NCBI RefSeq assembly: GCF_018141525.1
Contig: NZ_CP064655.1
Coordinates: 1,116,001 to 1,180,000 of the forward strand
Direction: 5' to 3'
Source: Miltoncostaea marina
GTDB taxonomy: Bacteria > Actinomycetota > Thermoleophilia > Miltoncostaeales > Miltoncostaeaceae
Length of the DNA stretch: 64,000 nt
This document shows, one piece after another, positions 4,632 to 60,816 of the stretch. The position numbers were made by a program, and so were the translations under genes. Position 1 is the first letter of the stretch, and each line of letters starts with the position of its first letter. A model generated the notes under the pieces. That model saw only the letters and a program-made list of their open reading frames with translations, had not been told where the DNA came from and ran no database searches.

Positions 4632-4637
4632 CGGGGG

Positions 4638-8810: not shown

Positions 8811-8874
8811 GGGAGGGACCTCCGGGTCGGTGGGGCGGGGCGGGCGCGACCCTAGCGCCCGGCGCGGCCGGCGG

Positions 8875-10895: not shown

Positions 10896-10901
10896 GGCCC
10901 C

Positions 10902-10907
10902 AGTATC
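10902..10907 (-). promoter_or_regulatory. -10 box GATACT of the two-component operon
   Basis: GATACT on the minus strand, 6 nt before the response-regulator ATG. It serves the regulator-kinase operon and is divergent from the ligase gene. Confidence 0.4.
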
Positions 10908-10977
10908 GCTCGGCCGCGCCGTGGGTATGGCACCCCCGGCGCCGCCGGGACCCCGGCGGGCCGGCGCGGAGGGGCGC

Positions 10978-12459: not shown

Positions 12460-12512
12460 CGCGCGCGGGGGTCCGGGCCCGCCCGTGGCGGCCGGGGAGG
12501 CCGCCCCGCGGC

Positions 12513-12893: not shown

Positions 12894-12901
12894 GCCCGCG
12901 G

Positions 12902-12907
12902 ACCCTA
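12902..12907 (-). promoter_or_regulatory. -10 box TAGGGT of the thioesterase gene
   Basis: TAGGGT on the minus strand ends 8 nt before ATG 12893. A divergent TACCGT (12925-12930) on the plus strand may serve the ABC transporter operon, giving that operon a short leader with a ribosome site. Confidence 0.45.
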
Positions 12908-12957
12908 CCGTCACGGGCGGCCGCTACCGTGGCGGTCGGCGACGAGGGGAGCGGCGG

Positions 12958-13926: not shown

Positions 13927-14693
13927 TGGGCTACGCGGTCCGCGACGTGCTGGCGATGACCTGGCGCAACCTGCTGACGATCCGGCGCCTGCCGCAGCTG
14001 CTCGTGTTCGCCACCATCCAGCCGCTGCTGTTCGTGCTGATGTTCCGCTACGTGTTCGGCGGCTCGATCCGGGTGCCGGGCGTCGACTACGTCAACTACC
14101 TGATGCCCGGCATCTTCGCGCAGGTGGTGGCGTTCGGCGCGGTCAACACCGCGGTCGGGCTGGCCGAGGACCGCCACACGGGCCTCATCGAGCGGCTGCG
14201 CTCGCTGCCGATGGCCCGCCCGGCGGTGCTCGCCGGGCGCACCCTGGCCGACCTCGCGCGCAACGTGCTGGTGGTGGCCCTGATGCTGGCGGTGGGCTTC
14301 GCGGTGGGCTTCCGCATCGAGACCAACGCGGCGAAGCTGCTGCTCGGCATCGCGGTGCTGCTGCTGTTCGGCTTCGCCCTGTCGTGGATCTTCGCCTTCG
14401 TCGGGCTGTCGGTGCCGAACGCCGAGTCGGCCCAGGCGGCCGCCTTCCCGATCATGCTGCCGCTGGTCTTCGCGTCGAGCGCCTTCGTCTCGACCGACGC
14501 CATGCCCGACTGGCTCGAGGTCTTCGCCGAGCACCAGCCGGTGACCGCGGCGGTCGACGCGGTGCGCTCGCTGGCCCTCGGCGGGCCGTGGCTCGGCGAC
14601 GTCGCCGTCAGCCTGGCCTGGACGGCCGGCGTGCTGGCCGTGTTCGTGCCGCTGTCGGTGCGCCGCTACCGGCGCGGGGCGGCCGCGGGGTGA
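13926..14693 (+). CDS. ABC-2 type exporter permease (DrrB type)
   Basis: 255 aa with about six membrane spans, starting with 'VRDVLAMTWRNLLTIRR', the cytoplasmic helix of ABC-2 permeases, and containing 'MPGIFAQVVAFGAVNTAVGLAEDR' and 'MPDWLEVFAEHQPVTAAVDA', both diagnostic of the DrrB group. The start shares bases with the stop of the ATPase gene (TGATG). Together they form an exporter for a drug, glycolipid or other lipophilic substrate; which one cannot be told. Confidence 0.92.
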   Translation: MGYAVRDVLAMTWRNLLTIRRLPQLLVFATIQPLLFVLMFRYVFGGSIRVPGVDYVNYLMPGIFAQVVAFGAVNTAVGLAEDRHTGLIERLRSLPMARPAVLAGRTLADLARNVLVVALMLAVGFAVGFRIETNAAKLLLGIAVLLLFGFALSWIFAFVGLSVPNAESAQAAAFPIMLPLVFASSAFVSTDAMPDWLEVFAEHQPVTAAVDAVRSLALGGPWLGDVAVSLAWTAGVLAVFVPLSVRRYRRGAAAG

Positions 14694-43714: not shown

Positions 43715-43788
43715 CGGGACGTGGCGCAGCCTGGTAGCGCACCGCCTTTGGGTGGCGGGGGTCCCCGGTTCGAATCCGGGCGTCCCGA
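43715..43788 (+). tRNA. tRNA-Pro (anticodon TGG), integration target
   Basis: 74-nt cloverleaf: acceptor CGGGACG / CGTCCCG with discriminator A, D-arm GCGCAGCCTGGTAGCGC, anticodon stem-loop CCGCCTTTGGGTGGCGG (TGG), T-arm CCCCGGTTCGAATCCGGG. Its 3' half is the left copy of a 46-bp repeat that bounds the mobile element. Confidence 0.95.
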
Positions 43789-43789
43789 T
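43744..43789. other. attL core, 3' half of tRNA-Pro
   Basis: 46 bp from the anticodon loop to the base after the discriminator. An identical copy is at 55090-55135. It keeps the tRNA intact, as expected for a tyrosine-integrase site. Confidence 0.93.
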
Positions 43790-43807
43790 AGTGATTTGCA
43801 GGGGTTT

Positions 43808-44968
43808 CTAGTTCGCCGGCGCCGCTGCTTCCGCGCCGCACCTCCGTTCTACCTCCAACATGCGGGCGTCGAGCCGGGCGAGCATCTCGGCCCGCGGGCG
43901 CTCCAGCAGGTGGCCGTAACGGTCCATCGTGATCTGGATGGAGGAGTGCCCGAGCGTGTCGGCGATGAGCTTCGGGTGCGTGCCCAGCTCGATGAGGATG
44001 GCGGCGCAGGTGTGGCGCAGGTCGTGGAAGCGCAGGCGGTGCTTCTCTGCCGAGAGCGCGCGCCTGACCGCGGGCCGGAAGTCGCGCCGGGTGAAGTTGT
44101 GCCGGTCGAGCAGGGCGCCGCGCGCGCCGGTGAACACGACGCCGTCCGGCCCGGTGCCGCCCTCGGTGTAGCGCTCCCAGTGCCGCGTCAGTTCTTCGCG
44201 GAGGAAGGCGGGCAGGTCCACGGTGCGCGCCTTGCCGTTCTTCGGCGTGGTCCACTCGGCGGCGCGCCTGTCCACCTGCGAGAGCGACTCGGCCACGGTC
44301 AGCCGCCCGGCGAGCAGGTTCACGTTCCGCCGCCGCAGGCCCGCCAGCTCGCCGAACCGTAGCCCGGCGAAGGCGGCCGTCAGGATCATCGCCCGGTACC
44401 GCGGCGGCACGGCGCCGGCCAACGTCCAGACCTCCTCGGGCGAGAGATAGAGCTGCTCGCGCTCGCGCACCCGCGGCATCGGCACGCCCGCGGCGGGGTT
44501 CACCGGCAACCAGCCGAGGTACACGGCGTGGTTGAGCGCCTGGCGCCAGACGCCGTAGACCTTGCCCACGGTCGCCGGCGAGCGCCGCCCGCGGCTCAAC
44601 TCGACCACCCAGGCGTCCGCGTCGGCCCGGGTGATCCGGCTGAGCTGCACCTTCTCCCAGCGGGGCAGCACGTGGACGCGCAGCACCGTCGCATACCGCG
44701 CGGCTGTCGAGGGCTTAAGCCCCGCCCAGGCCTGCGACTGCTGCCACCGCTCGACCAGGGCGCCGAACGTGACGCGGCCGAGCATCGGGTCGCGCAGGGT
44801 GCCGAGGTCCGCCTCGTGCTCAACCTTGCGACGGAACTTCTTGGCGTCCCCCTCGCGGCGGAACGTCTTTGTCCTTTGCCGGCGCCGCCCGTACTCGTCG
44901 CGCACGTCGTAGCGGACCTCCCACCGCGACGGGTCTTCCTTCGGCACTCCCCGTATGTGGGCCATCAC
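43808..44968 (-). CDS. Tyrosine integrase
   Basis: 386 aa. AP2-like arm-binding N-terminus (1-55), SAM-like core-binding domain ('VTFGALVERWQQSQAWAGL' to ~165) and catalytic domain. The catalytic residues are Arg in 'AGLRFGELAGLRRR', His-x-x-Arg in 'RFHDLRHTCAAIL', His in 'DTLGHSSIQITMDRYGH' and the Tyr within that last motif. The gene ends 18 bp from attL and is read toward the tRNA, the standard layout. A CRP-type palindrome lies 14 bp upstream of the start. Confidence 0.96.
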   Translation of the reverse strand: MMAHIRGVPKEDPSRWEVRYDVRDEYGRRRQRTKTFRREGDAKKFRRKVEHEADLGTLRDPMLGRVTFGALVERWQQSQAWAGLKPSTAARYATVLRVHVLPRWEKVQLSRITRADADAWVVELSRGRRSPATVGKVYGVWRQALNHAVYLGWLPVNPAAGVPMPRVREREQLYLSPEEVWTLAGAVPPRYRAMILTAAFAGLRFGELAGLRRRNVNLLAGRLTVAESLSQVDRRAAEWTTPKNGKARTVDLPAFLREELTRHWERYTEGGTGPDGVVFTGARGALLDRHNFTRRDFRPAVRRALSAEKHRLRFHDLRHTCAAILIELGTHPKLIADTLGHSSIQITMDRYGHLLERPRAEMLARLDARMLEVERRCGAEAAAPAN

Positions 44969-44981
44969 CGCACCTCTCTTC

Positions 44982-44999
44982 TTGTGACAACTGTCACAA
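44982..44999. promoter_or_regulatory. Perfect palindrome TTGTGACA-AC-TGTCACAA upstream of the integrase
   Basis: An 8-bp perfect inverted repeat with a 2-bp centre. Its core TGTGA-N6-TCACA is the CRP/GlxR consensus. It sits 14 bp before the integrase ATG, in the right place to control excision or integration, either by a host CRP-family regulator or by an unidentified element repressor. Confidence 0.75.
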
Positions 45000-45162
45000 T
45001 TGAAAGGTACGCCAGCGGTGGGCCGCTGGAGGTAGCGATCGAGGTGGAGTAATCCATGTTCTTCGGTCCTCGCAGGGAAATCGACGTCTACGACCCGGGC
45101 CTGGCAGGAGCGGGGCCAGCCGCAGCCGACCCCGCTTCCGCCGGGCGCTCAGGTCGTCGGGC

Positions 45163-45402
45163 TCACCTCCGTTCCGGCTTGCGGTAGGGGTGCAGCTCGT
45201 CGTGGTAGACGCCGAGCGGCTGGCCCAGCACCTCAGCCTCAACCAGGTTCTGCAGGCTGTGCACGTTGGGCGGCTCTTCCTGCGCCTCGTCGTTCCAGAG
45301 GAAGTAGACGTCGCCGCTCTTGGTGTTCCAGGCGACGACAGGGAACGAGGTGCGGTCTTCCATGAGGACGTACCAGCCCGGGTACGCGGGGACCGCGCTC
45401 AT
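45163..45402 (-). CDS. Small acidic element protein (79 aa)
   Basis: ATG 45402 overlaps the previous stop by 4 nt (ATGA). Product 'AYPGWYVLMEDRTSFPVVAWN', 'GDVYFLWNDEAQEEPPNVHS', ending in a basic 'PYRKPERR'. It has a beta-strand-rich look with no known family. Its place next to the integrase in a two-gene operon suggests an accessory or anti-host role, unproven. Confidence 0.6.
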   Translation of the reverse strand: MSAVPAYPGWYVLMEDRTSFPVVAWNTKSGDVYFLWNDEAQEEPPNVHSLQNLVEAEVLGQPLGVYHDELHPYRKPERR

Positions 45403-45641
45403 GACGCCACCTGCTGTCCTCCGTCCGCCCACTTGCGGTGGTCGTCCCGGTAGATCACCGGGAAGATGATGGAGCCCCACGGAACGATGAGGGCGCCGGT
45501 GTCCTCAGGCAGGGGACCGGGCGTATCGAGCAACTGGGCCAGCTCCCAGAGCATCGACTCGGCTTCGCAGAGGGCGCCGAGGAACCAGTCCTCGGCCTCG
45601 TGCGAAAGGTCGTCCTGGATGTCAAGTGTCTGCTGTGCCAT
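45399..45641 (-). CDS. Small acidic element protein (80 aa)
   Basis: 'MAQQTLDIQDDLSHEAEDWF' then 'AESMLWELAQLLDTPGPLPED' and 'SIIFPVIYRDDHRKWADGG'. Strongly acidic in its first half and mostly helical. First gene of the overlapping pair with 45163-45402. A GGAAAGG site precedes its ATG. No family recognised. Confidence 0.62.
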   Translation of the reverse strand: MAQQTLDIQDDLSHEAEDWFLGALCEAESMLWELAQLLDTPGPLPEDTGALIVPWGSIIFPVIYRDDHRKWADGGQQVAS

Positions 45642-45815
45642 TGCGGAGCACCTTTCCCTCCCCGACGGGGAAGTTCGGATGCTCGACGGGCCGGCTCAGC
45701 TCGGCGCCCCTTGCAGGATGGGTGGCGGCGCCACCTCTGCGAGCGTTATTCGATGAGGCGACGCCTCTGACTAGGACGTCGCGCGCGCACTATCCCACAA
45801 ACCCGGCGGGGGCTG

Positions 45816-46112
45816 TCAAGCGTCGTCCGGTTCGGCCTCAATGCGCCCAACGCTGTTGAGCGGCGCCAACTCGATCAATGCCCGCCCGATGAGCTTGACG
45901 GCGTCGTCCGGATCGCTTTCGGCTCGTGCCAGCAGCATCGCCGCGGGCCGCGTGCGCCCGGGGTCGGGGCTCGCTTCGAGCTTGCCGCGCAGGAGCGCCA
46001 GCTCGCCCCGGACGTTGTCGCCCTCTGCCGCATGGCGCTGGACGGCCACGAGCGATTCGTAGAAGTCGCTGCCCTTGCCGTAGTCCGCGAACTCGTAGTG
46101 AATCTCTCCCAC
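45816..46112 (-). CDS. Hypothetical element protein (98 aa)
   Basis: I place the start at GTG 46112 because AAGGAG lies ~6 nt before it; a longer GTG start at 46130 is also open. 'IHYEFADYGKGSDFYESLVA' followed by 'GDNVRGELALLRGKLEASPD' and a helical tail 'DPDDAVKLIGRALIELAPL'. Unknown function. It follows the PD-(D/E)XK-like gene by 14 nt and is probably in its operon, a position where an immunity or partner protein could sit (speculative). Confidence 0.6.
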   Translation of the reverse strand: MGEIHYEFADYGKGSDFYESLVAVQRHAAEGDNVRGELALLRGKLEASPDPGRTRPAAMLLARAESDPDDAVKLIGRALIELAPLNSVGRIEAEPDDA

Positions 46113-46126
46113 GACGTCTCCTTCCC

Positions 46127-46618
46127 TCACTGAGCTTGCTCGCCGGGTAGCAGTACCGACGAGAGATCGATCGCCTCCACTTCCGGGTCAGCGCGCAGGC
46201 GGCGTGTGACTCGCACGATGCGACCGTTCACGTAGGGGTTGTGGTCGTAGAGCCGCTCGACGGTCGCTCGGGACAGCCGGAGGGCCTCGGTCACGTTGAA
46301 GTCCTCGTCGAAGATCACGATGAGCAGGTAGTCGTAATCGGCGTCCCGGATCGGACTGAGGTTCGTCCGCTTGCCGGTGCTGGTCGTGCGCAGCGCCTTG
46401 ACCTGGATGCGCTCGCCGGCGGGCGTGAGAACGTCCCACCCGGCCTGACTGAAGCTGCCGCGCGTGCCTCCGTAGTGCGTCGCCACGACCGCCTCGGCGA
46501 TGTCGCCAATCGGGCTGTTGTTGGTGCGGATGACGTCGCGGTGGCGCAGCGCGCGCATGATCGCCGCCCAGTCGGCCAGCAGTTCTCGGGTGGTCCGGCT
46601 CTCGGGGTTGTACGTCAT
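46127..46618 (-). CDS. DUF6998-like, putative PD-(D/E)XK nuclease
   Basis: 163 aa. 'NNSPIGDIAEAVVATHYGG', then 'AGWDVLTPAGERIQVKALRT', 'YDYLLIVIFDEDFNVTEALRL' and 'HNPYVNGRIVRVTRRL'. The E (GDIAE), D (GWDVL) and QVK arrangement is that of the PD-(D/E)XK nuclease core, and the whole matches my memory of the DUF6998 family, which has no established function. A near-copy with a frameshift is in the neighbouring element remnant (55320-55805), so it travels as cargo. It may be a defence or host-takeover nuclease (inference). Confidence 0.7.
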   Translation of the reverse strand: MTYNPESRTTRELLADWAAIMRALRHRDVIRTNNSPIGDIAEAVVATHYGGTRGSFSQAGWDVLTPAGERIQVKALRTTSTGKRTNLSPIRDADYDYLLIVIFDEDFNVTEALRLSRATVERLYDHNPYVNGRIVRVTRRLRADPEVEAIDLSSVLLPGEQAQ

Positions 46619-46987
46619 CGGCTCGATCCTGGTCGGAGGTGCCGCTGGAGGTGCGGCGACGCGTGCGAGCAAGTGTATGCGCGTCTCGGGCGGCATCCGG
46701 CGTAACCGACTCCCGCCTACGTCGGGCGGGACACCTTCTGGCCGGCCTCCCAGCGGGGGTCCGGGCGCCGCGCGCCGGCCAGCCCGCACGGGTGCTTTGC
46801 GGCCGAGGGAGGCCCGCACCCCTCGCACCCATATCAACGGGCCGCACAACCCGCGGGGAGCCCCACATATCGGCCCGTCGAGGCCTGACACGCCGCTATG
46901 GCCTGCCCCGCTGGAGGGCGGGGTCCTGAGGCCATGGCGCGCCCTTCTCCGGGTGCCGCTACCTGCCGCTACTCCGCTACCCACGGC
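46619..46987. other. Non-coding stretch with a long hairpin
   Basis: No gene seen. A strong stem-loop at about 46898-46936 pairs ATGGCCT with AGGCCAT and CCCCGC with GCGGGG, and may be a transcription end or structural part of the origin. Three CCGCTAC copies lie between 46956 and 46980. Confidence 0.5.
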
Positions 46988-47134
46988 CGTCGCTACGTCG
47001 CTAACGTCGCTAGATTTCGGCTAAACCCTACGCCCGTCGCAAGTGACCCATTTTCTCTGTTGCTTCCTAAGAAAGAAAAAAGGCAGCGCGTAGGGTTTAG
47101 CCGAAAGCTAGCGACGTAGCGACGGTTAGCGACG
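46988..47134. other. Putative replication origin with mirrored iterons
   Basis: Left side: CGTCGCTA at 46988, 46996 and 47005, ending in a 29-bp arm (47005-47033). Right side: the reverse, TAGCGACG at 47109, 47117 and 47127, with the matching 29-bp arm (47088-47116; one mismatch). Between them lies a ~54-bp stretch that is AT-rich by local standards (47034-47087). This is the form of an iteron origin with an unwinding element. It lies just past the end of the replication ATPase and primase genes. Confidence 0.78.
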
Positions 47135-48580
47135 TTACGGCGACACCGCTTTGAGCCGGCCGCGGGCGGCGGCCTTCGGCTGGTCTAACCACCGCAGCTG
47201 GATCTCGCGCCGCGTGCCGTGCTTGAAGCTGACCGCCAGCCGCCGCGCGCTGCGGAGCTGCGGCTGCATCCGGCGCAGCCGCATCGAGAGAGCGCGCGCG
47301 TTAGCCGGGTAGTTGCGGCCGTCGCTGTGGATCGGTTTCAACGCCGCGTGCAGCTCGCTGGACGTCCCTGTCCAGCGGGGCTGGCCGTGCATGAACGCCA
47401 GCAGCGTCGCCGTGAGTGGGTCGCTCTCAAGCACCATCTCCACGAGGTGCTCCTGCCCCGCGGTGTACGCGTCCAGCGAGTGCGAGCCGGTCGCCGCATC
47501 GACCGCCGCCATCACCTCTGCGGCGTCGGCCATGCGGGGCGGCTTGGGCAAGTGGACCGGCTCAGCGACCACCCGCGCCACGAGGTCCAGCAGCCCGCCC
47601 AGCATGGCCGGCAGCGCCGCGGCATAGGCCTGGTCCAGCGCGCGCTCGGTCATGCGCTTGCCGCGCAGCGGGCGCAGCTCGACGGGCATCAGGCGCTCGC
47701 CGAGGTCGCCGCGCAGGCTGCCGGGGTCGATAGACGTCAGCAGCAGAGCACGCCGGAACATCGTCACGACGAGGTCGCCGTCGGTGTAGAGCTGCCGCTT
47801 AGCCGAGCCTTCGCCGGTGACCGCCCGACAGAAGGCGTCCGAGAGCGGCTCGTCGATGCGCGAGATGTTGTCGAGGCCGACGACGCGGCTTGCCGAGGCC
47901 ACCGCCAGCCACTCGGCAAGGTCGCGCGGCGCGGAGCGCAACGCAGCCGGCGAGGGGTCCACGAGGTTGACCAGCGCCCGCCCCAGGAACGACTTACCGG
48001 CGCCCTGCGGCCCCGTGAGCGTCAGGATGGGCACCGGCACGTCCGCCAGCCATGCCATCGCGAGCCAGGCCTGCGCGAGGTCCCATGCCTCCTCGCTCAG
48101 GTTCACGAGCGTACGGAGCGTCGCGAGGCCGCCGCCGCGCTTCGGCTTCGGGAGCGGGGAGGTCAGGCGCGTGCGGCGGAACACGATGCCGTCCGGCGGC
48201 GCCTTGCGGATCGCCCAATGGCCGCCCTCGATGACGATGACCTGACCCGTTTCGTCGCCCAGGTCAACGACGACGCGATCCTGCTCGCGCACGCACCGGA
48301 GATGAACGGCGATGCGCTCCCGTCCGTCGGCCTGGGCCTGGAGAACCTCCATAGCGTTGGCGAGAGCGGTCTTCGATGGCGTGCTGCCGGTCCGCTCGAA
48401 GTACTCGCGGGTGAGATGGGCCGACAGCGACCCGCCCTTGCCGAGCACCGGCCGGGCGATGCGCGGCCCGCGCCGCGGGACGCCGTACACCGCGCCGGTG
48501 CCGTCGGGCGCGATCTCGTAGAGCTTCTCCGCCATCTCGACGAGGATGACCGCCTGGGGCTTCTTGCCCTTGCCGCTCAT
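47135..48580 (-). CDS. Phage/plasmid-type P-loop replication ATPase
   Basis: 481 aa. Walker A 'TLTGPQGAGKSFLGRALV' near residue 190, Walker B-like 'SRVVGLDNISRIDEPLSDAF' near 240, and sensor 'FRRALLLTSIDPGSLRGDLGERL'. An N-terminal ~150 aa domain is unassigned; the C-terminus ends in a winged-helix-like part ('DGRNYPANARALSMRLRRM'). This is the DUF927/primase-helicase-like group of mobile elements. It likely unwinds the adjacent iteron origin. The ATG overlaps the primase stop by 4 nt. Confidence 0.82.
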   Translation of the reverse strand: MSGKGKKPQAVILVEMAEKLYEIAPDGTGAVYGVPRRGPRIARPVLGKGGSLSAHLTREYFERTGSTPSKTALANAMEVLQAQADGRERIAVHLRCVREQDRVVVDLGDETGQVIVIEGGHWAIRKAPPDGIVFRRTRLTSPLPKPKRGGGLATLRTLVNLSEEAWDLAQAWLAMAWLADVPVPILTLTGPQGAGKSFLGRALVNLVDPSPAALRSAPRDLAEWLAVASASRVVGLDNISRIDEPLSDAFCRAVTGEGSAKRQLYTDGDLVVTMFRRALLLTSIDPGSLRGDLGERLMPVELRPLRGKRMTERALDQAYAAALPAMLGGLLDLVARVVAEPVHLPKPPRMADAAEVMAAVDAATGSHSLDAYTAGQEHLVEMVLESDPLTATLLAFMHGQPRWTGTSSELHAALKPIHSDGRNYPANARALSMRLRRMQPQLRSARRLAVSFKHGTRREIQLRWLDQPKAAARGRLKAVSP

Positions 48581-49446
48581 GTCGCCACCGCCCCGCTCCA
48601 GCGGAGCAACCGGCGCAGCTCGGCAGCCGTGCGCCCGGCGCGGAACCAGTCGGTCAGGTCGCCGCCGTGGGGCAGGGGCAGCCGCACGACGCGCACCTGG
48701 GCGCCGGCCGCGCGCAGCTTGCGCGCCGTCGCTGCGGCCTGGTCCTGCTCGCCGGCGTCGTACACCACGGCGATGCCCCGGCCCGCAGGCCGCAGCGCGG
48801 CGACCAGGGCGCCGGGCAGACTGGCGCCGCAGGTCGTCGTCACGGCGTGGATGCCGTGCTGCCGGGCGATGAGTGCGTCGAACTCGCCCGCGCAGAGGAC
48901 CACCCGGCGCCGCTGGGGCGGGGTCGGGTAGAGCTGCGACCCGCGCCCGCCGAGGCCGACCATCTTCGGGCCGGCTCCGGGATCGAGGAACCGGCGCCGC
49001 AGGTTGACCAGGCGCCCGTCGGCGTCGCGCACCGGGAGCGTGACGGCGCTGCCGTCGTAGCCGAGCTGGTGACGGTCGATCGTCGTCCAGTCCAGGCCGC
49101 GAGCGTGCGTGACGTACAGCCGCGCCGCCCGGCTGCGCTCCAGCGCCCGCTGCCACCGCGCGATCTGGCGCTCGCTCGGCAGGGGCGCCGGCTCACGGTC
49201 GGTCGCGCGGGCGGCCTGCGGGTCGCCCAGGTACGTGAGCGGGTCGTCCAGGAGCAGCCCGCCCGACCCAGGCGGCAGGTCGAGCGCCTCCGCAAGCAGC
49301 GCGAGGTACTCACCCCGCCCGGGACACGCCCAGCACCGCACCCACCAGCCGCCGGTCGGCTTCCGGTCCACACTTAACTTCTGCGGACCACTACACACCG
49401 GACACGTGTATAGGTAGCCACGCGCCGCGCTGTTAGCTATACTCAC
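48577..49446 (-). CDS. DnaG-like primase (zinc ribbon and TOPRIM)
   Basis: 289 aa. Starts at GTG 49446 behind GGAGGG. The zinc ribbon is 'YTCPVCSGPQKLSV' with 'WVRCWACPGRGEYLALLAE'; the catalytic TOPRIM part has 'RVVLCAGEFDALIARQHG' (the Glu) and 'GIAVVYDAGEQDQAAATA' (DxD-like). It would prime replication at the element origin with the overlapping ATPase. Shorter than host DnaG (about 600 aa), as expected for an element enzyme. Confidence 0.86.
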   Translation of the reverse strand: MSIANSAARGYLYTCPVCSGPQKLSVDRKPTGGWWVRCWACPGRGEYLALLAEALDLPPGSGGLLLDDPLTYLGDPQAARATDREPAPLPSERQIARWQRALERSRAARLYVTHARGLDWTTIDRHQLGYDGSAVTLPVRDADGRLVNLRRRFLDPGAGPKMVGLGGRGSQLYPTPPQRRRVVLCAGEFDALIARQHGIHAVTTTCGASLPGALVAALRPAGRGIAVVYDAGEQDQAAATARKLRAAGAQVRVVRLPLPHGGDLTDWFRAGRTAAELRRLLRWSGAVAT

Positions 49447-49539
49447 GGTGCCCTCCACTTCCTCTCGTGAGGGCTGGCGAGCATGGCGTTGTCTGCGCCC
49501 CCGAGGCCCTTCCCCTCGGGGGCGTCCTCTTTGTAGCCA

Positions 49540-49737
49540 TCAGTCCACCGCCTCGACCTTGTTCGCCTCGATGTAGGCGTCGAGGTCGTCGGGGTCGAAG
49601 GCGACGAACTTGCCCATCTTGAGGTAGGTCAGCCGGCGCTCGGCAACCGCGCGCCGCACCCACCGCTCCGAGCGACCGAGGTACTCGGCAGCGCCCTTGA
49701 AGTCGAGGGGCGGCCTGTGTGTCTTTGTGGTGCTCAA
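49540..49737 (-). CDS. AlpA/excisionase-like helix-turn-helix protein
   Basis: 65 aa from TTG 49737 (GGAGGG before it). 'LDFKGAAEYLGRSERWVRRAV' and 'LTYLKMGKFVAFDPDDLDAYI' are the MerR-like winged-helix blocks of the HTH_17/AlpA/Xis group. It should regulate or assist excision. Upstream (about 49750-49785) several CGAAC/GTTCG elements could be its own binding sites. It is divergent from no gene but heads the minus-strand replication operon. Confidence 0.85.
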   Translation of the reverse strand: MSTTKTHRPPLDFKGAAEYLGRSERWVRRAVAERRLTYLKMGKFVAFDPDDLDAYIEANKVEAVD

Positions 49738-49906
49738 CTCTCAACCCTCCGAACTAGCGAACGACGAAGTTCGTGTTCGAGTTCGGCTGCTGGGAGGAGC
49801 TATGCGGCGGAGTGCGCCACTGCCACCCGTAGGCGACGGCGGAAACTGTACGCCAAGCCGTACAAGCTGGCAACTCGCCCGCTATAAACCGTACGGCGCC
49901 TGGGAC

Positions 49907-50506
49907 CTACCCCTCGCCGAGGGCCATGCCGGACAGGTCGTCGCCCTCGTTGAAGCGCCCGAGGTGGTACCGCACGACGTCGGGTGCGCGCTGCATCTGG
50001 TCCTGGTCGAGGTCGAGGTCGTCGAGCACGGCCTTGATGAGCTCGCCCATCAGCCGGCCCCAGCGCTGCGCGAGCTGCACCTGGCCGGCGTCCACGCCCG
50101 CATCGAGCGCAGCCTTTGCCACCTGGGCCAGGCGGTCGCGCTCCTCGCCGTACAACGTGACGAGCATCGCAGTCTGCTCGGCCGTGAGGTCCTCGGCCGC
50201 GCCGACTTGCTCGTGCAACCACGCCACGTGCCCTGATGCCGCATGCACCAGCCAGATCAGCGCCTCGGCCGCAGTGACGTCCATCGGCATTCCCATCGTG
50301 ATCATACGCCGCTGCGTCTCGTGCCGAATAGCTGCCTTGATGTGGTTCGGTGTTGAGCCGCCGTGAAGCTTACATTTACCTATCCCGGGATGTGGAGTGC
50401 CCCAGCCCGCGTACAACTTGCAGGTTTCGCCCTGGCGGTTCCGGGCGCCGCACAAGGTCTTCCCGTGGCGCAGGTTCGTAAGTGGGTCGGTGGGGCGTGA
50501 GGGCAT
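49907..50506 (-). CDS. HGG-motif phage-type protein (possible small-terminase-like)
   Basis: 199 aa. The N-terminal zinc-binding motif is 'LCGARNRQGETCKLYAGWG' followed by 'GKCKLHGGSTPNH', the Cys-Cys-Cys-His 'HGGxxP' signature found in phage proteins usually near terminase genes. The helical rest ('LDAGVDAGQVQLAQRWGRLMGELIKAVLDDL') suits an oligomer. ATG 50506 is preferred over ATG 50533 because GGAGG precedes it. If it is a small terminase it could redirect helper-phage packaging (inference). Confidence 0.7.
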   Translation of the reverse strand: MPSRPTDPLTNLRHGKTLCGARNRQGETCKLYAGWGTPHPGIGKCKLHGGSTPNHIKAAIRHETQRRMITMGMPMDVTAAEALIWLVHAASGHVAWLHEQVGAAEDLTAEQTAMLVTLYGEERDRLAQVAKAALDAGVDAGQVQLAQRWGRLMGELIKAVLDDLDLDQDQMQRAPDVVRYHLGRFNEGDDLSGMALGEG

Positions 50507-50539
50507 GCTGACTTGCCTCCGATACGTCGCCATGTGTAG

Positions 50540-50632
50540 CCGGGCCGTGACGTATATTGTAGTGTAATGCGTGCATGCACAGGGGTACTGGGGCGGGATC
50601 CCAGTACCTAACTCATTTCCAGAGGTAACGCC
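50540..50632. promoter_or_regulatory. Divergent promoter region with leader hairpin
   Basis: Between the HGG-motif gene and the plus-strand operon lie an AT-rich TATATT (50553-50558), a perfect palindrome GTGCATGCAC (50571-50580) and a 9-bp stem-loop GGTACTGGG / CCCAGTACC (50584-50608, 7-nt loop) just before the ribosome site AGAGGTAA of the gene at 50633. Confidence 0.55.
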
Positions 50633-51238
50633 ATGAGCCTTGATATCGACGACGTGAGAACATCACGCAAAGCCGGGTGGTTGCCGGCGAGCACCGGGTG
50701 GCCCGAGGTGGAGGAGCTGCGCGAGCGCCACGTGGCAGCCGTTGCCATCCACCGCGAGGCGTCGGATGCCCTCAGCGCCATCCGCGCCAAGCACGACCAG
50801 GAGGACGCCGAGCGCAAGCACGCGCTCGCCAGCGCAGCCCGTGCCGGCAAGCGGCCGAAGCTCCGCCAGCCCGACCGCGCCGCCCGCGAGGCCGAGCTTG
50901 CCGGCGCCCAGGAGCGGCTCGACGCCGCGACCGAGGTCCTGGAGGAGGTGTACGCCGAGGTGCTGGCGGCCTTGCGCGAGCTGGCGCCCGAGGCCGCCGC
51001 GCGTTTGCAGAGCGCCCAGGCCGAGGCCGAGGAGGAGCGCCGCCGGGCGCGCGAGGCGGTGCTCGCGGCAGAGCGCGAGGTGCTCAGGGTGCGGCACCTG
51101 GCCCAGTGGTTCGACCGCACGGTCAACAAGAGCTCGTCCTGGCGGGCGGCATTCGACGAGCTGCCGGTGCCCGAGCCAGCCCCTGAGCCCGACTGGGCCG
51201 CCATCATCGGCACGGGCGGGGTGATCGCCAATGCCTAG
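50633..51238 (+). CDS. Coiled-coil element protein
   Basis: 201 aa, long charged helices: 'WPEVEELRERHVAAVAIHRE', 'AAREAELAGAQERLDAATEVL', 'EVYAEVLAALRELAPEAAARL' and 'AEEERRRAREAVLAAEREVL', with a Pro/Glu tail. Such proteins occur in many phages and satellites as scaffolds or structural helpers. No family assigned. It begins a five-gene overlapping run to 52558. Confidence 0.7.
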   Translation: MSLDIDDVRTSRKAGWLPASTGWPEVEELRERHVAAVAIHREASDALSAIRAKHDQEDAERKHALASAARAGKRPKLRQPDRAAREAELAGAQERLDAATEVLEEVYAEVLAALRELAPEAAARLQSAQAEAEEERRRAREAVLAAEREVLRVRHLAQWFDRTVNKSSSWRAAFDELPVPEPAPEPDWAAIIGTGGVIANA

Positions 51239-51542
51239 CCCCGAGCACGTCCGCATCAAGGCGAGCGACATGGGCCTTGCGCCCTCCGTGCGGGCGACGC
51301 GCACCGTCGCCACGCGGGTGATGGCAAAGGCGAGCGCCGCTGGGGCCGGGGAGGGGGCGTACCCGTCCGCGTGGCTGCCCGGCCTCGCGCCGGTGCCGAT
51401 CGCCAACGCCCCGGCCATCGCCGACCCTGCGCCCATCACCGCCGTGCGCACCGAGGCCGCGTCCCCAGCGGAGGGCCACTACCCGGCGGGCTGGCTGCCC
51501 GAGCTGCGGGTGCAGGCGGGCGCCGTGGTGGGGTTGTCATGA
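51231..51542 (+). CDS. Hypothetical element protein with two internal repeats (103 aa)
   Basis: Overlaps the previous gene by 8 nt. A short motif occurs twice, 'EGAYPSAWLPGL' and 'EGHYPAGWLPEL', separated by a Pro/Ala-rich 30-residue linker. The two copies suggest a peptide-binding or tail-like motif, but nothing is known. Confidence 0.6.
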   Translation: MPSPEHVRIKASDMGLAPSVRATRTVATRVMAKASAAGAGEGAYPSAWLPGLAPVPIANAPAIADPAPITAVRTEAASPAEGHYPAGWLPELRVQAGAVVGLS

Positions 51543-52024
51543 GGACGGCCGAGCGCATCGCCTTTCTGGCCCGGCGCTACCGCCTGCTGGCCGAGCGCGA
51601 GGGCCTGTGCAGCCTGCGCCGCAGCCGGGAGGCGCGCGCCGACTACCTCGACCACGCCGAGGCCCTCGGCTACCCACTGATGGACGCCGTGCAGGTGCTC
51701 GGCGCCGGCGAGCTGGACTTCATCTGCGCGGCGGCGGTGCGCGAGCTGGCCCGCCCGGGCGCCCGCACCGAGCACGTCCTGCGCCTGTTCTCCTGGCTCG
51801 ACCACGAGCGCCTGGTGGCGATCGCCTACGCGCTGCCGGAGGACAGGCGCCACGTCGTTCAGCGGCACGGCGTCTGGGCCTACGCCTACAACCACGCGCC
51901 GTCCGGCATGGCGGCGGCCGTGCGGCGCGTCGCCGAGGTGAACGCGATCGGCCGGGTGACGAGCGTCGGCCGCTGGTTGCTGAGCGAGGCGGAGACCGAC
52001 CTGACGACGGAGGTCCCGGCATGA
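51539..52024 (+). CDS. Helical element protein (161 aa)
   Basis: ATG 51539 overlaps the previous stop (ATGA). Mostly helix: 'RIAFLARRYRLLAEREGLC', 'HVLRLFSWLDHERLVAIAYAL' and 'AVRRVAEVNAIGRVTSVGRWLL'. Several Trp/Tyr residues in the middle ('HGVWAYAYNHAPSG'). I do not recognise it. Confidence 0.62.
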   Translation: MRTAERIAFLARRYRLLAEREGLCSLRRSREARADYLDHAEALGYPLMDAVQVLGAGELDFICAAAVRELARPGARTEHVLRLFSWLDHERLVAIAYALPEDRRHVVQRHGVWAYAYNHAPSGMAAAVRRVAEVNAIGRVTSVGRWLLSEAETDLTTEVPA

Positions 52025-52380
52025 GCGCCGACGAGGTCGCCCTGCGGGCCGAGCGCCTGCGGGTGCTCTACGTCGTCAACGGCGCCGAGGCCGAGCTCGA
52101 CGCGCGCGAGGCACCCCTGCCCGCGCTCAGCGAGCGCGAGCAGCGCCTGATGATGGAGGCGACCGAGGAGGACCTCGCCCTGGCCGCCGAGGTCATCGGG
52201 GCCGCGCGCTGGCAGCGCCGGGTGCAGTGGTACGCGCTGGAGATCCTTCTCGGCTATCTGCAGCCGGGCGAGCGGCCGTGGGAGGCCTTCGAGCGGCTGG
52301 AGAACGAGGAGCGCCGCTACTTCCTCAAGCTGCTGGCGGCCTCTGGATGGTGGAAGCCGGCGCCCGATGCAACCCTCTGA
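52021..52380 (+). CDS. Helical element protein (119 aa)
   Basis: ATG 52021 overlaps the previous stop by 4 nt. Acidic helices ('LSEREQRLMMEATEEDLALA') and a conserved-looking end 'AFERLENEERRYFLKLLAAS' then 'GWWKPAPD'. Unknown function; same operon as its neighbours. Confidence 0.62.
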   Translation: MSADEVALRAERLRVLYVVNGAEAELDAREAPLPALSEREQRLMMEATEEDLALAAEVIGAARWQRRVQWYALEILLGYLQPGERPWEAFERLENEERRYFLKLLAASGWWKPAPDATL

Positions 52381-52558
52381 GGACGACGAACAGCGCTGTC
52401 CGGCCTGCGGCGAGGTGATCCCCGAGGAGTGGTGGGTCTCGCACCTCGCCGGGGCGGACCGGCGCCGCATCGACTGCCCGGCGCAGGACCTGGTCGCGGT
52501 CGCCCGGCGCCAGCAGCCCGGTACCGCCTTCGCCCAGTTGGTGCAGGCGCCCTGGTAG
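52367..52558 (+). CDS. Small Cys/His zinc-binding protein (63 aa)
   Basis: Overlaps the previous gene by 14 nt. 'EDDEQRCPACGEVIPEEWWVSHLAGADRR' split as CPAC...H then 'IDCPAQDLVAVARR' gives a Cys2-His-Cys zinc-finger pattern. Last gene of the plus-strand run. Confidence 0.55.
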   Translation: MQPSEDDEQRCPACGEVIPEEWWVSHLAGADRRRIDCPAQDLVAVARRQQPGTAFAQLVQAPW

Positions 52559-52798
52559 CCCCGCCCCTGCGGCCCACGCTATGGGGCCTAGCGTGGGCTG
52601 TACGGGCGTTTGATCTGAGGAGAGGCTACAGGGGAAGGGCTAAGTCCCCGCAGCGGTCCAAGTCGGGGTGCAGTCCTCCGTACGAGTCGCTGCCCCGTAC
52701 AGGGCGCGGTACCGATTGTGTCGGCGGCGCTTGACGGCGTGTTCGTACCGTGCAAATCTCGGTGCGACATCTGGTGCGAACGGGACGAAGGAGGACCT
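52559..52798 (+). promoter_or_regulatory. 240-bp leader before the cargo genes
   Basis: No gene of conviction. GGGGAAGGGCTAAGTCCCC and CCAAGTCGGGGTGCAG can fold, and GTACGAGTCGCTGCCCCGTAC is an imperfect stem. A TTGACG near 52731 may be a -35 box. It separates the unknown operon from the cargo and ends with AAGGAGG just before ATG 52799. Confidence 0.4.
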
Positions 52799-53416
52799 AT
52801 GGCTGGTCAGATTGGTTCGGGGACCGCGGACGGGCTCATGGAGTTCTTGGACTACATGGTCAAGAGCGGGTATGCGCCGGTGGGCGCGATGAACGCGTGG
52901 AAGTCGGCGACGAAGCAGGTCTTCGTCAAGGTTGAGGGCGAGGACTTTGGGACCGTGGACGTTCGGTCGTTCGATCCAGACGAGTATCTGGATCGCTTCG
53001 AGACGATCGTGATGGGCCGGTACAAGCGAGAAAGCCTCGACGCGTATCGGGTTCGCTTCAGGAAGGCGATAGGCGCCTACCGCGAGTATCTCGCCGACCC
53101 GAAGAACTGGAAGCGACCGACCTTCAGGGCATCGTCTCGTCAGCGGCGAGTTGCGAACAGCGATTCGCCGGCGACTCCAGCGACGTCGGCGGCGACGCGC
53201 ACGAGCAATGGAACGTCCGCGAAGGTGGAGAGCGACCAGGGGCTCATCGACTATCCGTTCCCACTGCGGTCTGGGCAGATGGCTCAGCTGCGCCTACCCG
53301 CCCGGCTGGACAAGACGGACGCTGAACGGTTGGGCGCCTTCCTGCGAACGCTGTCGTTCGAGCCCCAGGGGCAGCTCCCGTCGTCTACGAGCGACGATGA
53401 GGGCTCCGATGAGTGA
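52799..53416 (+). CDS. Cargo protein with integrase-type SAM-like N-terminus
   Basis: 205 aa, AAGGAGG ribosome site. Residues ~8-105 ('GLMEFLDYMVKSGYAPVGAMN', 'FDPDEYLDRFETIVMGRYKR', 'YRVRFRKAIGAYREYLADP') resemble the core-binding SAM-like domain of tyrosine recombinases, but no catalytic domain follows. After a Ser/Thr linker the end reads 'IDYPFPLRSGQMAQLRLPAR' and 'AERLGAFLRTLSFEPQ'. The stop overlaps the next gene by 8 nt. The codon use is less GC-rich than the rest of the element. It may be a DNA-binding partner of the nuclease. Confidence 0.6.
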   Translation: MAGQIGSGTADGLMEFLDYMVKSGYAPVGAMNAWKSATKQVFVKVEGEDFGTVDVRSFDPDEYLDRFETIVMGRYKRESLDAYRVRFRKAIGAYREYLADPKNWKRPTFRASSRQRRVANSDSPATPATSAATRTSNGTSAKVESDQGLIDYPFPLRSGQMAQLRLPARLDKTDAERLGAFLRTLSFEPQGQLPSSTSDDEGSDE

Positions 53417-54209
53417 CGGCCCCGAGCAGTATGAGGTCGACGACAAGCTGACCGAGATGGTCCACGCGTGGGAGGACGTCGAGCGCGGCCTCGTCGCGCG
53501 CTATTCGCGGGGCATTGAGAAGAACGGCCTTCCCAACGCGATCAAGCTCGCGCACCGCGTCGAAGCGGAGTATTTCGAGGACAGCTGGGGCGAACCCGCG
53601 ACGCAGTACGTCCTCATGTTCGACGTCCACGATTCGGCAGCCCGGTTGGCCGCGAACAGCGTCAAAGCCTACGAACGCGTCCTCAGCGACGAGGTGCGCA
53701 GGCACGTCCAGACCTGGAAGACGCACCCACCCTTCCGTATTCAGAGGATCTCCCGCGATCGCAGCGGCGGCGGTCGCGCGTGTTCCCGGCACTTTTCGGC
53801 GCCAGCGACGCCCGAACTTGTCGATGCTCCAATCCCAAAGCCGATCGGCCGAGGCCCGTACATCGAGCGCGACGACTACTCGTTGACGCCGATCGAGGTT
53901 CCCATCTACGAGGCGCTCCTCGAGACCGGCCTGACGTTCTCGGTGCAGCCGTTCATCCAGGGCACCGACAGGCGGTATCGGCCCGACTTCTTGGTCTTCT
54001 ACGGAGGCAGCGCGGTCGCCGTTGAGTTGGACGGTCACGACGCCCACAAGACGAAGGAGCAGAGGTCGAAGGACGCGGAGCGAGATCGCTGGCTGAATGC
54101 TCGCGGCATCCGGACCCTCCGCTGGACAGGGAGCGACGTTCATCGGAACCCGCAGGCATGCGTCCGCGAGCTGATGGACATCGTTCGAGGGTCGGCGGCG
54201 CGCCCCTAA
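53409..54209 (+). CDS. Cargo PD-(D/E)XK nuclease, DUF559/Vsr-like
   Basis: 266 aa. The C-terminal ~130 residues are a nuclease of the VSR/DUF559 type: 'LTPIEVPIYEALLETGLTFS', 'DRRYRPDFLVFYGGSAVAVELDGHD' (PDFxx..xVELDG carrying the catalytic D and E), 'SKDAERDRWLNARGIRTLRW' and 'ACVRELMDIV'. The N-terminal ~130 aa is unassigned and helical. It overlaps the SAM-like partner by 8 nt, so the two are made together. It might act as an anti-phage defence enzyme, which is inference. Confidence 0.72.
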   Translation: MSDGPEQYEVDDKLTEMVHAWEDVERGLVARYSRGIEKNGLPNAIKLAHRVEAEYFEDSWGEPATQYVLMFDVHDSAARLAANSVKAYERVLSDEVRRHVQTWKTHPPFRIQRISRDRSGGGRACSRHFSAPATPELVDAPIPKPIGRGPYIERDDYSLTPIEVPIYEALLETGLTFSVQPFIQGTDRRYRPDFLVFYGGSAVAVELDGHDAHKTKEQRSKDAERDRWLNARGIRTLRWTGSDVHRNPQACVRELMDIVRGSAARP

Positions 54210-54290
54210 GTTCCCGGCCGAGCGGCGAACGGTTGTTCCGTCCGGGCGGTGTGCTTACGTCTCTCTATCGGCACGCGCAGGAGGTGGACA

Positions 54291-54539
54291 GTGGCTAGAG
54301 GCAACGACAACGATCGGTACGTCCAGCCGCGACCCGACGGCGGATGGGAGGTCGTCAAAGAGCACCACGAGCGCGCCAGCGCCGTGACCAGTACGCAGCG
54401 AGAGGCGATCGACCGCGCTCGACAGATCGTTCAGGGAGCCGGCGGCGGGGAGCTGCGAATCAAGGGCCGCGACGGGCGGTTCCGCGACTCGGACACCATT
54501 CCGCCTGGGCGCGAGTCACCGGCCCGGGACACCAAGTAG
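54291..54539 (+). CDS. DUF2188-like small protein
   Basis: 82 aa from GTG 54291 (GGAGG 7 nt upstream). 'RYVQPRPDGGWEVVKEHHERAS' and 'TQREAIDRARQIVQ' then 'GGELRIKGRDGRFRDSDTI' match the DUF2188 pattern (beta-beta-alpha-beta, 'V.p....gW.v...ga..a....tq.eAi..A'). Function unknown; often found beside stress or defence genes. Confidence 0.8.
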   Translation: MARGNDNDRYVQPRPDGGWEVVKEHHERASAVTSTQREAIDRARQIVQGAGGGELRIKGRDGRFRDSDTIPPGRESPARDTK

Positions 54540-54548
54540 AGGCAGCTC

Positions 54549-54929
54549 ATGGCAGCGCGGCGCCGCGCGATGCCGACACTTGGCGAGCATCGGCACGCGC
54601 TGCGGTGGCACGCGAAGATGCTGGACGAGTACGGGTGGAGCAATCCGGACGCCCAGGATCGCTGGCTGATCCCGCTCTACCACCTGGTCGACCTCCTTCC
54701 CGAGGGGCACGATGGCGTCATCGCTGACGACACAGGGATGACGCCCAGTGACGCGCGCCGACTCAAGCGAGCGGGCGCCTGGTACGTGCGTGGGGCCCAC
54801 CGGGAGCACTGGCCGTGGTGGAAGCGCCTTCTGCTCCCGCTCGGGCCCGCTCGGCGCACGCGGCGGAAGATCGCAGCCCAACGGGCGCACTGGAGCGAAG
54901 ACGACCAGGCCTTCAGGTGGCGATGGTAG
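54549..54929 (+). CDS. Hypothetical cargo protein (126 aa)
   Basis: Begins at ATG 54549, after a 9-nt gap from the DUF2188 gene. 'ALRWHAKMLDEYGWSNPDAQD', 'LVDLLPEGHDGVIADDTGM', and a basic end 'RKIAAQRAHWSEDDQAFRWRW'. Rich in Trp. No family recognised. Last gene before attR. Confidence 0.6.
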   Translation: MAARRRAMPTLGEHRHALRWHAKMLDEYGWSNPDAQDRWLIPLYHLVDLLPEGHDGVIADDTGMTPSDARRLKRAGAWYVRGAHREHWPWWKRLLLPLGPARRTRRKIAAQRAHWSEDDQAFRWRW

Positions 54930-55089
54930 GTGCGGGCGCGCACCTCCATTCGCACCTCCACCCAGCGGCTCAGAGCGGTCTGGAGCGGGCTAGAGCGGTC
55001 GCGCCGCTGGAGGTCGAGAACCCGCTAGCAGAGCGGCATCTGGGCCGGGAACGGCTCCCCTAAGCGGTTCCCCGGGGAGCCGGTCGGCG
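54930..55089. other. Element end without gene
   Basis: Only GC-rich repeats of GAGCGG-type words precede attR; no credible frame. Confidence 0.45.
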
Positions 55090-55135
55090 GCCTTTGGGTG
55101 GCGGGGGTCCCCGGTTCGAATCCGGGCGTCCCGAT
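55090..55135. other. attR core
   Basis: Identical over 46 bp to the tRNA-Pro 3' half at 43744-43789. No D-arm or acceptor 5' strand precedes it, so it is not a tRNA gene. Confidence 0.93.
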
Positions 55136-55319
55136 GGGGTTTCGCAGGGCCTTCAGTAACCGGGTGCCGCCGGATGCCGCACACTCCGGCTCGGTGCCGA
55201 GCAGTGCGGAGATCGCGACTGTCGGGGGTCTCGGGCGCGTCCTGCCTCGGTCTGCCGGGGAGTGCTCGGGTTGCCAGAACGGCTCGCTGCGCGGGGCTGC
55301 TCGCCGGTGCGCATCCTCA

Positions 55320-55805
55320 TCAAGCGTGCTCGCCGGGCAGCAGGACGGAGGACAGATCGACCGCCTCGACCTCGGGGTCAGCGCGCATGCGGCGCGTCAC
55401 CCGCACGATCCGGCCGTTGACGTAGGGATCGTGGTCGAAGAGCCGCTCGACGGCCGCCCGGGGCAGTCGGAGCCCCTCGGTCACGTTGAAGTCCTCGTCG
55501 AAGATGACGATGAGCAGCTGGTCGTACTCGGCGTCGCGGACCGGGCTGAGGTTCGTCCGCCTTCCCGTGCTCGTCCGCCGGAGCGACTTGACCTGGATGC
55601 GCTCGCCGGCGGGCGTCAGCACGTCCCAGCCCGCCTGGCTGACGCCGCCCCGCGTGCCTCCGCAGTGCGCCGCGACGACTGCCTCGGCGATGTCGCCGAT
55701 CGGGCTGTTGTTCGTCCGGTGACGTCGCGATGGCGGAGCGCGCGCATGATCGCCGCCCAGTCGGCCAGCAGTTCTCGGGTGGTCCGGCTCTCGGCGTCGT
55801 AGGTC
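55320..55805 (-). pseudogene. Frameshifted DUF6998-like gene copy
   Basis: Starts like its paralogue ('ESRTTRELLADWAAIMRALR') in one frame; after 'HRD' a single missing base near 55721 shifts to another frame, where 'NNSPIGDIAEAVVAAHCGG', 'AGWDVLTPAGERIQVKSLR', 'YDQLLIVIFDEDFNV' and 'VNGRIVRVTRRM' continue to the normal end (LLPGEHA). At the protein level it is closely similar to 46127-46618. Inactive unless the base loss is an assembly error. Confidence 0.85.
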
Positions 55806-55897
55806 ACTGGTTCGTTTCCGGGGTCGGGGCGCCGGTGGCTCTGCGGGGTGCCGGCCAGCGGGTGGGGCCGGCCGGCCGTCTCCGCTGACGGCCATCG

Positions 55898-55922
55898 CCG
55901 GTTGGAATCCGGGCGTCCCGAT
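55898..55922. other. Third att core copy
   Basis: CCGGTTGGAATCCGGGCGTCCCGAT differs at one base from the T-arm/acceptor part of tRNA-Pro. Outer boundary of the second element remnant. Confidence 0.8.
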
Positions 55923-60703: not shown

Positions 60704-60816
60704 CGCGAGCGACTCTCCCACCTTCTGGCGGATGGGGTCACCTAGCCGAACGGGTGGGCGGCGACCTCGACCCGGCTGGGAGACATGAGCTTCAGCTTCG
60801 ACCTGACGGTGAGCAG

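What the first reader, a model, noticed from the sequence alone, without database searches (positions are those of the whole stretch)
43744..55135. Undescribed satellite-like self-replicating island in tRNA-Pro
The sequence shows 46-bp identical cores, a tyrosine integrase, an AlpA/Xis-like protein, primase, helicase-type ATPase and an iteron origin, an HGG-motif phage protein, but no capsid, portal, relaxase or transfer genes. From knowledge of phage-inducible chromosomal islands, this core set suggests a phage satellite; such elements are little described outside Proteobacteria and Firmicutes. Helper dependence is inference.
Basis: partly seen in the sequence, partly recalled or inferred. 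Interest (0 to 1): 0.85.

Follow-up and report, generated by a model that had tools for sequence, protein, structure and literature searches.

The report
Actinobacterial phage-satellite island with packaging gene
An 11.4-kb piece of mobile DNA inserted in a tRNA gene of a Thermoleophilia (Actinomycetota) genome carries its own integration and replication genes plus a phage DNA-packaging gene but no genes for making a virus particle, so it is most likely a parasite that rides in the particles of other phages, and it belongs to a little-explored set of such islands in this bacterial class.

Summary
Window 43744-55135 is an 11.35-kb island with identical 46-bp att cores in tRNA-Pro(TGG). It encodes a tyrosine integrase, an AlpA/HTH_17 protein, a Toprim primase, an AAA+ replication ATPase and an origin of two inverted sets of three iterons around an AT-rich spacer. 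A same-genus genome has the empty site. The key addition is the 'HGG-motif' protein: in 44 of 45 IMG/VR contigs examined, which span three unrelated large-terminase lineages, its homologue lies directly upstream of the large terminase gene (TerL). It is therefore very probably a small terminase (TerS), the gene SaPI-type satellites use to redirect packaging. The island has no TerL, portal, capsid, FtsK or relaxase. Independent islands in the same class (G127, G227, G299, G011) and in Actinomadura carry TerS, integrase and replication genes without a particle-forming set; in one, TerS-TerL is followed by a homologue of island gene r1. Best reading: a PICI-like phage satellite of a new actinobacterial lineage, whose replication ATPase is shared with actinomycete conjugative elements (AICEs). 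Helper dependence, packaging and the helper's identity are inferred, not shown. A prophage in the same chromosome is a possible helper, but its TerL belongs to another family.

The parts
43715..43788 (+). tRNA-Pro (TGG), integration target; stays intact at the left end
   Evidence: ARAGORN
43744..43789 (.). attL core, 46 bp
   Evidence: identical to 55090-55135
43808..44968 (-). tyrosine integrase
   Evidence: PF00589 2.5e-21; phrog_1 8e-75
45163..45402 (-). g2, small ORF, no family
   Evidence: no match
45399..45641 (-). g3, small ORF, no family
   Evidence: no match
45816..46130 (-). g4, small ORF, no family
   Evidence: no confident match
46127..46618 (-). accessory gene: DUF6998 / mREase_II, candidate methyl-directed restriction enzyme
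   Evidence: PF22522 2.7e-9; PADLOC PDLC03212 2.1e-27
46988..47134 (.). candidate replication origin: 3 + 3 inverted CGTCGCTA iterons, 30-bp 97% inverted repeat around an AT-rich 54-bp spacer, immediately 3' of the ATPase gene
   Evidence: fold z -9.28
47135..48580 (-). AAA+ replication ATPase/helicase, related to that of Streptomyces plasmids and AICE-type elements
48577..49458 (-). Toprim/zinc-finger primase, phage DNA-primase type
   Evidence: phrog_47 8e-21; Toprim_3 5e-5
49540..49737 (-). AlpA/Xis-like HTH_17 protein
   Evidence: PF12728 2.7e-8; excisionase phrogs
49907..50533 (-). HGG-motif protein, inferred small terminase subunit (TerS)
   Evidence: phrog_3678 3.8e-25; homologues directly upstream of TerL; AF2 model: Cys-rich N-terminus plus long helices, pLDDT 84
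50633..51238 (+). r1: helical-hairpin protein; homologue directly after TerL in the G011 island
51231..51542 (+). r2: small ORF with repeated Y-P-x-x-W-L-P motif, no family
51539..52024 (+). r3: unknown; homologue next to TerS and integrase in the G127 island
52021..52380 (+). r4: unknown
   Evidence: no match
52367..52558 (+). r5: small putative zinc-ribbon protein
   Evidence: weak Zn_ribbon match
52799..53416 (+). r6: accessory, unknown
   Evidence: searches scanned the longer ORF: no confident match
53409..54209 (+). r7: accessory, nuclease-like (DUF559/MTES_1575)
   Evidence: PF18741 2.3e-9 (just under cut-off), PF04480 2.9e-7
54249..54539 (+). r8: accessory, DUF2188; homologue at the tRNA-Pro site of G019
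   Evidence: PF09954 7.7e-20
54549..54929 (+). r9: unknown
   Evidence: no match
55090..55135 (.). attR core, 46 bp
55315..55821 (-). adjacent remnant: second, frameshifted copy of the mREase_II gene (85-89% nt identity in two blocks)
55886..55922 (.). third, degenerate att copy (84% of 37 nt)

Best explanation
This is a PICI-like phage satellite. The integrase inserts it into the 3' end of tRNA-Pro and, with AlpA as excision and/or regulatory factor, excises it. The ATPase and Toprim primase replicate it from the iteron origin. When a helper phage is active, the satellite's own TerS (HGG protein) recognises a packaging site on satellite DNA and recruits the helper's TerL, portal and capsids. 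r1 may act in packaging or head assembly. The mREase_II and r6/r7 genes are accessory genes, probably anti-phage defence. Shown: att sites, empty site, gene set, origin anatomy, the link of the HGG family to TerL, absence of particle and conjugation genes, recurrence in independent islands. Inferred: excision, replication, TerS activity, helper dependence, packaging, role of r1.
For: Perfect 46-bp att and empty site in G067. The HGG homologue is directly upstream of a TerL-size ORF in most of 69 IMG/VR loci; of 45 such ORFs, 44 fall into three BLAST clusters and PHROGs calls them terminase large subunit. No TerL, portal, capsid or FtsK in the island by profile or homology search; the genome's TerL candidates lie outside the window. 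Origin anatomy matches that described for PICIs (iteron sets flanking an AT-rich region, 3' of the replication gene: PMC6092414; here). Islands with TerS but without portal or capsid: G299, 9.8 kb between 36-bp repeats at tRNA-Met; G227, between 45-bp repeats at tRNA-Val; G011, 9.7 kb between 21-bp repeats at tRNA-Glu, with TerS-like/TerL/r1; G127 with r3 homologue 2e-17; Actinomadura L152 with Toprim-ATPase fusion, HGG TerS, AlpA, tape-measure-like gene; G113, ATPase relative plus a phrog_1496 TerS on one contig.
Against: No experiment and no virion reads. The HGG-TerS assignment rests on synteny, as fold searches were uninformative. No Stl-like repressor was recognised. The ATPase family is commoner in AICEs and plasmids. 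The resident prophage's TerL is not of a family seen next to HGG TerS, so the helper is unknown. Close relatives of the whole island were not found: r1 and r3 had no hit in IMG/VR.
Confidence: 0.68

Rival explanations
1. It is the lysogeny/replication end of a prophage that lost its structural genes by deletion; the TerS gene is a leftover without present function.
For: Integrase, AlpA, primase and TerS are all phage-type; a decayed second element sits next door; G171 and other loci hold isolated HGG fragments.
Against: Both att cores are perfect and the island's reading frames are intact. Replication genes and TerS without particle genes recur in bounded islands at tRNA-Met, tRNA-Val, tRNA-Glu and tRNA-Arg sites of other genomes with 30-40% identity. 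The order TerS-AlpA-primase-ATPase is not a phage late-region remnant.
Confidence: 0.15
2. It is an AICE derivative or integrated plasmid that lost, or is mobilised in trans for, conjugation; TerS was picked up incidentally.
For: The best relatives of the replication ATPase are on Streptomyces plasmids and next to FtsK, RRQRL and Prim-Pol genes in Streptomyces and Nocardiopsis. AICEs combine Int, Rep and FtsK and use tRNA sites (PMC3218068).
Against: No FtsK, relaxase or other transfer gene in the island. The Prim-Pol partner is replaced by a phage-type Toprim primase. TerS recurs in other islands of the class.
Confidence: 0.1
3. It is a self-replicating integrative element kept for its defence genes and moved only by generalised transduction or transformation, with no dedicated packaging.
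For: Restriction-type accessory genes; a second mREase copy in the neighbouring remnant suggests repeated arrival of the same accessory gene at this tRNA.
Against: A dedicated TerS gene, and an r1 homologue placed right after TerL in G011, would be unexplained.
Confidence: 0.07

Closest known systems
SaPI-type PICIs of Gram-positive cocci
   Same: Site-specific integrase, own primase plus replication ATPase, origin 3' of the replication gene with two iteron sets around an AT-rich region, terS, accessory genes, no particle genes, similar size (features from PMC6092414)
   Different: Proteins detected here are of actinophage/AICE families; no Stl/Rpr repressor recognised; TerS is of the Cys-rich HGG type; induction not tested
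Gram-negative PICIs (EcCI type)
   Same: AlpA-like regulator, primase/replication module, iteron origin
   Different: Those are transcribed in one direction and EcCICFT073 has no TerS (PMC6092414); here two divergent gene blocks and a TerS
AICEs (actinomycete integrative and conjugative elements), Prim-Pol/RepPP type
   Same: Tyrosine integrase in tRNA; ATPase of a family found in FtsK- and Prim-Pol-bearing elements
   Different: No FtsK transfer protein; Toprim primase instead of Prim-Pol; carries TerS
Streptomyces satellites MiniFlayer and MulchRoom
   Same: Satellites of actinobacterial phages
   Different: They encode encapsidation machinery and lack key replication genes (PMC10690885); this island is the reverse
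cfPICIs
   Same: Satellite with own packaging gene(s)
   Different: No capsid genes here; G011 has TerL but no portal or capsid in its 9.7 kb

Membership tests
PICI (phage-inducible chromosomal island) | Integrase and specific att site | tested here: met
   empty site in G067
PICI (phage-inducible chromosomal island) | No capsid, portal, tail or lysis genes | tested here: met
PICI (phage-inducible chromosomal island) | Primase/replication gene with 3' origin, two iteron sets flanking an AT-rich region | tested here: met
   against the description in PMC6092414
PICI (phage-inducible chromosomal island) | Packaging function: terS or helper cos/pac | tested here: met
   HGG TerS by synteny in 44 of 45 contigs; activity not tested
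PICI (phage-inducible chromosomal island) | Master repressor (Stl/Rpr) or AlpA regulator | tested here: inconclusive
   AlpA-like HTH_17 present; no repressor recognised
PICI (phage-inducible chromosomal island) | PICI-exclusive genes by sequence homology to known PICIs | not tested
   No direct comparison with SaPI/EcCI proteins was run
PICI (phage-inducible chromosomal island) | att site never used by prophages | tested here: inconclusive
   Other insertions at this tRNA-Pro in G119 and G019 were not classified
PICI (phage-inducible chromosomal island) | Phage-dependent induction, interference and packaging in particles | not testable with these tools
   needs a helper phage and cultures
AICE | Integrase | tested here: met
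AICE | Rep of RepSA, RepAM or Prim-Pol/RepPP type | tested here: inconclusive
   ATPase related to that of Prim-Pol/FtsK elements, but no Prim-Pol; RepPP assignment not formally tested
AICE | FtsK/SpoIIIE transfer protein | tested here: not met
Prophage or defective prophage | Large terminase, portal, capsid or tail genes | tested here: not met
cfPICI | Own capsid morphogenesis genes | tested here: not met

The most novel reading that the evidence does not exclude
The island belongs to a distinct, class-wide group of Actinomycetota phage satellites built on replication modules shared with AICEs and actinophages plus a captured HGG-type TerS. Its members take different amounts of phage packaging and tail machinery (TerS only; TerS+TerL+r1; TerS plus scaffold fragment, tail-collar or tape-measure genes), so it would form a bridge between conjugative-element replicons and phage satellites.
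Probability: 0.4. Interest if true: 0.75.

Novelty: new variant of a known kind. Interest (0 to 1): 0.62.

Why it matters
Phage satellites are well studied in Proteobacteria and Firmicutes; in the library searched no paper links Thermoleophilia with prophages and satellites. The TerS link gives this island a concrete, testable transfer route. It assigns a probable function to an unnamed, widespread phage protein family (HGG motif, phrog_3678, listed as unknown), and that family could serve as a marker to find satellites in actinobacterial genomes and to separate TerS-bearing islands from AICEs that share the same replication ATPase.

Tried and rejected
Fold searches with the HGG model against PDB and BFVD gave no significant match (best E 0.6 and 0.14), and VIA-align only helical-bundle levels; the TerS assignment therefore rests on synteny. 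The r1 model (long helical hairpin) had no informative viral match. Scans of IMG/VR with the ATPase, primase, r3 and r1 found no relative. The r1 likeness to a G227 protein next to TerS (hhalign P 0.01) is not significant; only the G283 and G011 homologues are counted. A shared SWRxAFD motif between r1 and the G227 scaffold-like protein was seen by eye first and is not used. A TerS tree placed the island proteins on long branches with weak support: single or multiple capture cannot be told. The ATPase alone was rejected as a satellite marker, since most relatives are AICE- or plasmid-like. The resident prophage was considered as helper: it shares no island protein and no DNA stretch with E below 0.009, and its TerL is unlike the HGG-linked ones, so it stays a candidate only. 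No sigma-70-like promoter was found between the TerS gene and r1.
Full report
Anatomy. The window lies in a 3.37-Mb single-contig genome. A genome of the same family, G113, is represented by a contig of the same length and match position whose public record is titled 'Thermoleophilia bacterium isolate Chersky_814', so the host class is Thermoleophilia. The island runs from the 3' part of tRNA-Pro(TGG) to an identical 46-bp copy at 55090-55135. Leftward genes, in order of transcription: HGG protein, AlpA-like HTH_17, Toprim primase, ATPase, then after the origin the mREase_II/DUF6998 gene, three small ORFs and the integrase. Rightward genes are r1 to r9. G+C drops from about 76-79% in the chromosomal part upstream to about 65-75% in the island.

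Origin. Immediately 3' of the ATPase gene there are three CGTCGCTA iterons, an AT-rich spacer, and three inverted copies; the octamer occurs nowhere else in the island. The 30-bp arms are 97% complementary, and the strand folds 9.3 standard deviations below shuffled sequence. Fillol-Salom et al. describe the same arrangement, two iteron sets flanking an AT-rich region 3' of the replication gene, for PICIs (PMC6092414).

The HGG protein is a small terminase by synteny. It matches phrog_3678 (3.8e-25, unknown function) and weakly the NCBIfam HGG_STG domain. In Arthrobacter phage TripleJ and Glutamicibacter phage BIM BV-113 its homologue lies at the end of the early region, close to a DNA-binding protein; in BV-113 the annotated terminase follows three genes later. 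A scan of IMG/VR gave 69 loci. In most, the next gene starts within about 20 bp and is 460-540 aa long; in most others the terminase lies 1-4 kb downstream. Of 45 such downstream proteins, up to 35 match one terminase-large-subunit PHROG and 22 another, and 44 fall into three BLAST clusters with no links between them at E 1e-10, the odd one being a tail-fibre-like ORF. A gene that keeps its place directly before three different TerL lineages is best explained as TerS. The AF2 model (pLDDT 84) shows a Cys-rich N-terminal part and long helices; structure searches were uninformative.

Absent genes. Pfam, PHROGs, NCBIfam and PADLOC scans of the island proteins, and searches with terminase, portal, capsid, tape measure, baseplate and FtsK queries, found none of these in the island. 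The genome's TerL candidates are elsewhere. The one at 2.264 Mb belongs to a prophage with TerL, portal, capsid, tape measure and Baseplate_J genes, a possible but untested helper whose TerL is not similar to the HGG-linked ones.

Relatives. The ATPase is found on Streptomyces plasmids and in many actinobacterial chromosomes, mostly beside FtsK, RRQRL or Prim-Pol genes, that is in AICE-like elements. By itself it does not mark a satellite. Combined with TerS it does recur: G113 has the ATPase (38% identical) and a phrog_1496 TerS on one 5.9-kb contig. Actinomadura flavalba has, at tRNA-Arg, an integrase, an Xre-like protein, a Toprim-ATPase fusion, an HGG TerS, an AlpA-like protein and a tape-measure-like NlpC/P60 protein.

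Other islands of the class with HGG TerS. G299: 9.8 kb between 36-bp repeats at tRNA-Met, with Collar protein, TerS, replication initiator, AlpA-like protein and integrase. G227: between 45-bp repeats at tRNA-Val, with DnaB-like helicase, TerS, a scaffold-domain fragment of a head maturation protease, Tail_P2_I, Collar and integrase, with another repeat-bounded segment next to it. G127: integrase (8e-60), TerS and an r3 homologue (2e-17), with an IS3-type insertion. In none of these is there a TerL next to TerS, in contrast with the viral contigs.

Gene r1. Its two best homologues in the class are in G283 and G011 (7e-7 and 1.4e-5). In G011, a 9.7-kb element between 21-bp repeats at tRNA-Glu holds a RepA-like ATPase, a TerS-like ORF (no family match), TerL (phrog_2 2e-34), r1 directly behind TerL, and an integrase, without portal or capsid. 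r1 is therefore probably tied to packaging or head assembly in satellites. It is predicted to be a long helical hairpin and was not found in IMG/VR.

Site history. In G067 (same genus) tRNA-Pro is followed within about 150 bp by a cold-shock gene whose homologue in the window lies near 63.6 kb, so the site is empty there. The window has the island, then a 0.8-kb remnant with a frameshifted second mREase_II copy and a degenerate att, then further inserted genes. G119 and G019 also carry att repeats at this tRNA. The tRNA is an insertion hot spot.

Conclusion. Membership in the PICI family in the strict sense is not claimed: induction, interference and packaging are untestable here, homology to known PICI proteins was not tested, and no repressor was recognised. 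It works, most probably, like a TerS-bearing PICI, and represents an actinobacterial lineage with a replication module shared with AICEs.

Noticed in passing
G000:C1 about 2259000-2299000 (L232, L233): Prophage with contractile-tail-type genes (TerL, portal, capsid, tape measure, Baseplate_J) in the host genome; the ORF before its TerL has a ribbon-helix-helix domain.
   Followed up: partly
L250 (G011), 4392-14113: 9.7-kb tRNA-Glu element with RepA-like ATPase, TerS-like ORF, TerL, r1 homologue and integrase but no portal or capsid: a terminase-bearing minimal satellite candidate.
   Followed up: partly
L127 and L220 (G227), genome about 992313-1013172: tRNA-Val island with TerS, a head-protease scaffold-domain fragment, Tail_P2_I and Collar genes, a 2.6-kb internal tandem duplication including the integrase gene, and a second repeat-bounded segment beside it.
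   Followed up: partly
L130 (G299), tRNA-Met island: 9.8-kb island that pairs TerS with a phage tail-collar protein; a satellite carrying tail-tip genes could alter helper host range.
   Followed up: partly
L152, 5700-18400 (Actinomadura flavalba): tRNA-Arg element with Toprim-ATPase fusion, HGG TerS, AlpA-like protein and a 1241-aa tape-measure/NlpC-P60 protein.
   Followed up: partly
window 55315-55922: Remnant of an earlier island: frameshifted mREase_II copy and degenerate att; the same accessory gene arrived twice at this tRNA.
   Followed up: partly
window 55955-60721: Large secreted-looking protein with near-identical repeated PKD-like and other domains, inside the extra DNA absent from the G067 site.
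   Followed up: no
window 52799-54209: Overlapping gene pair r6 + DUF559/MTES_1575 nuclease-like r7: candidate defence pair.
   Followed up: no
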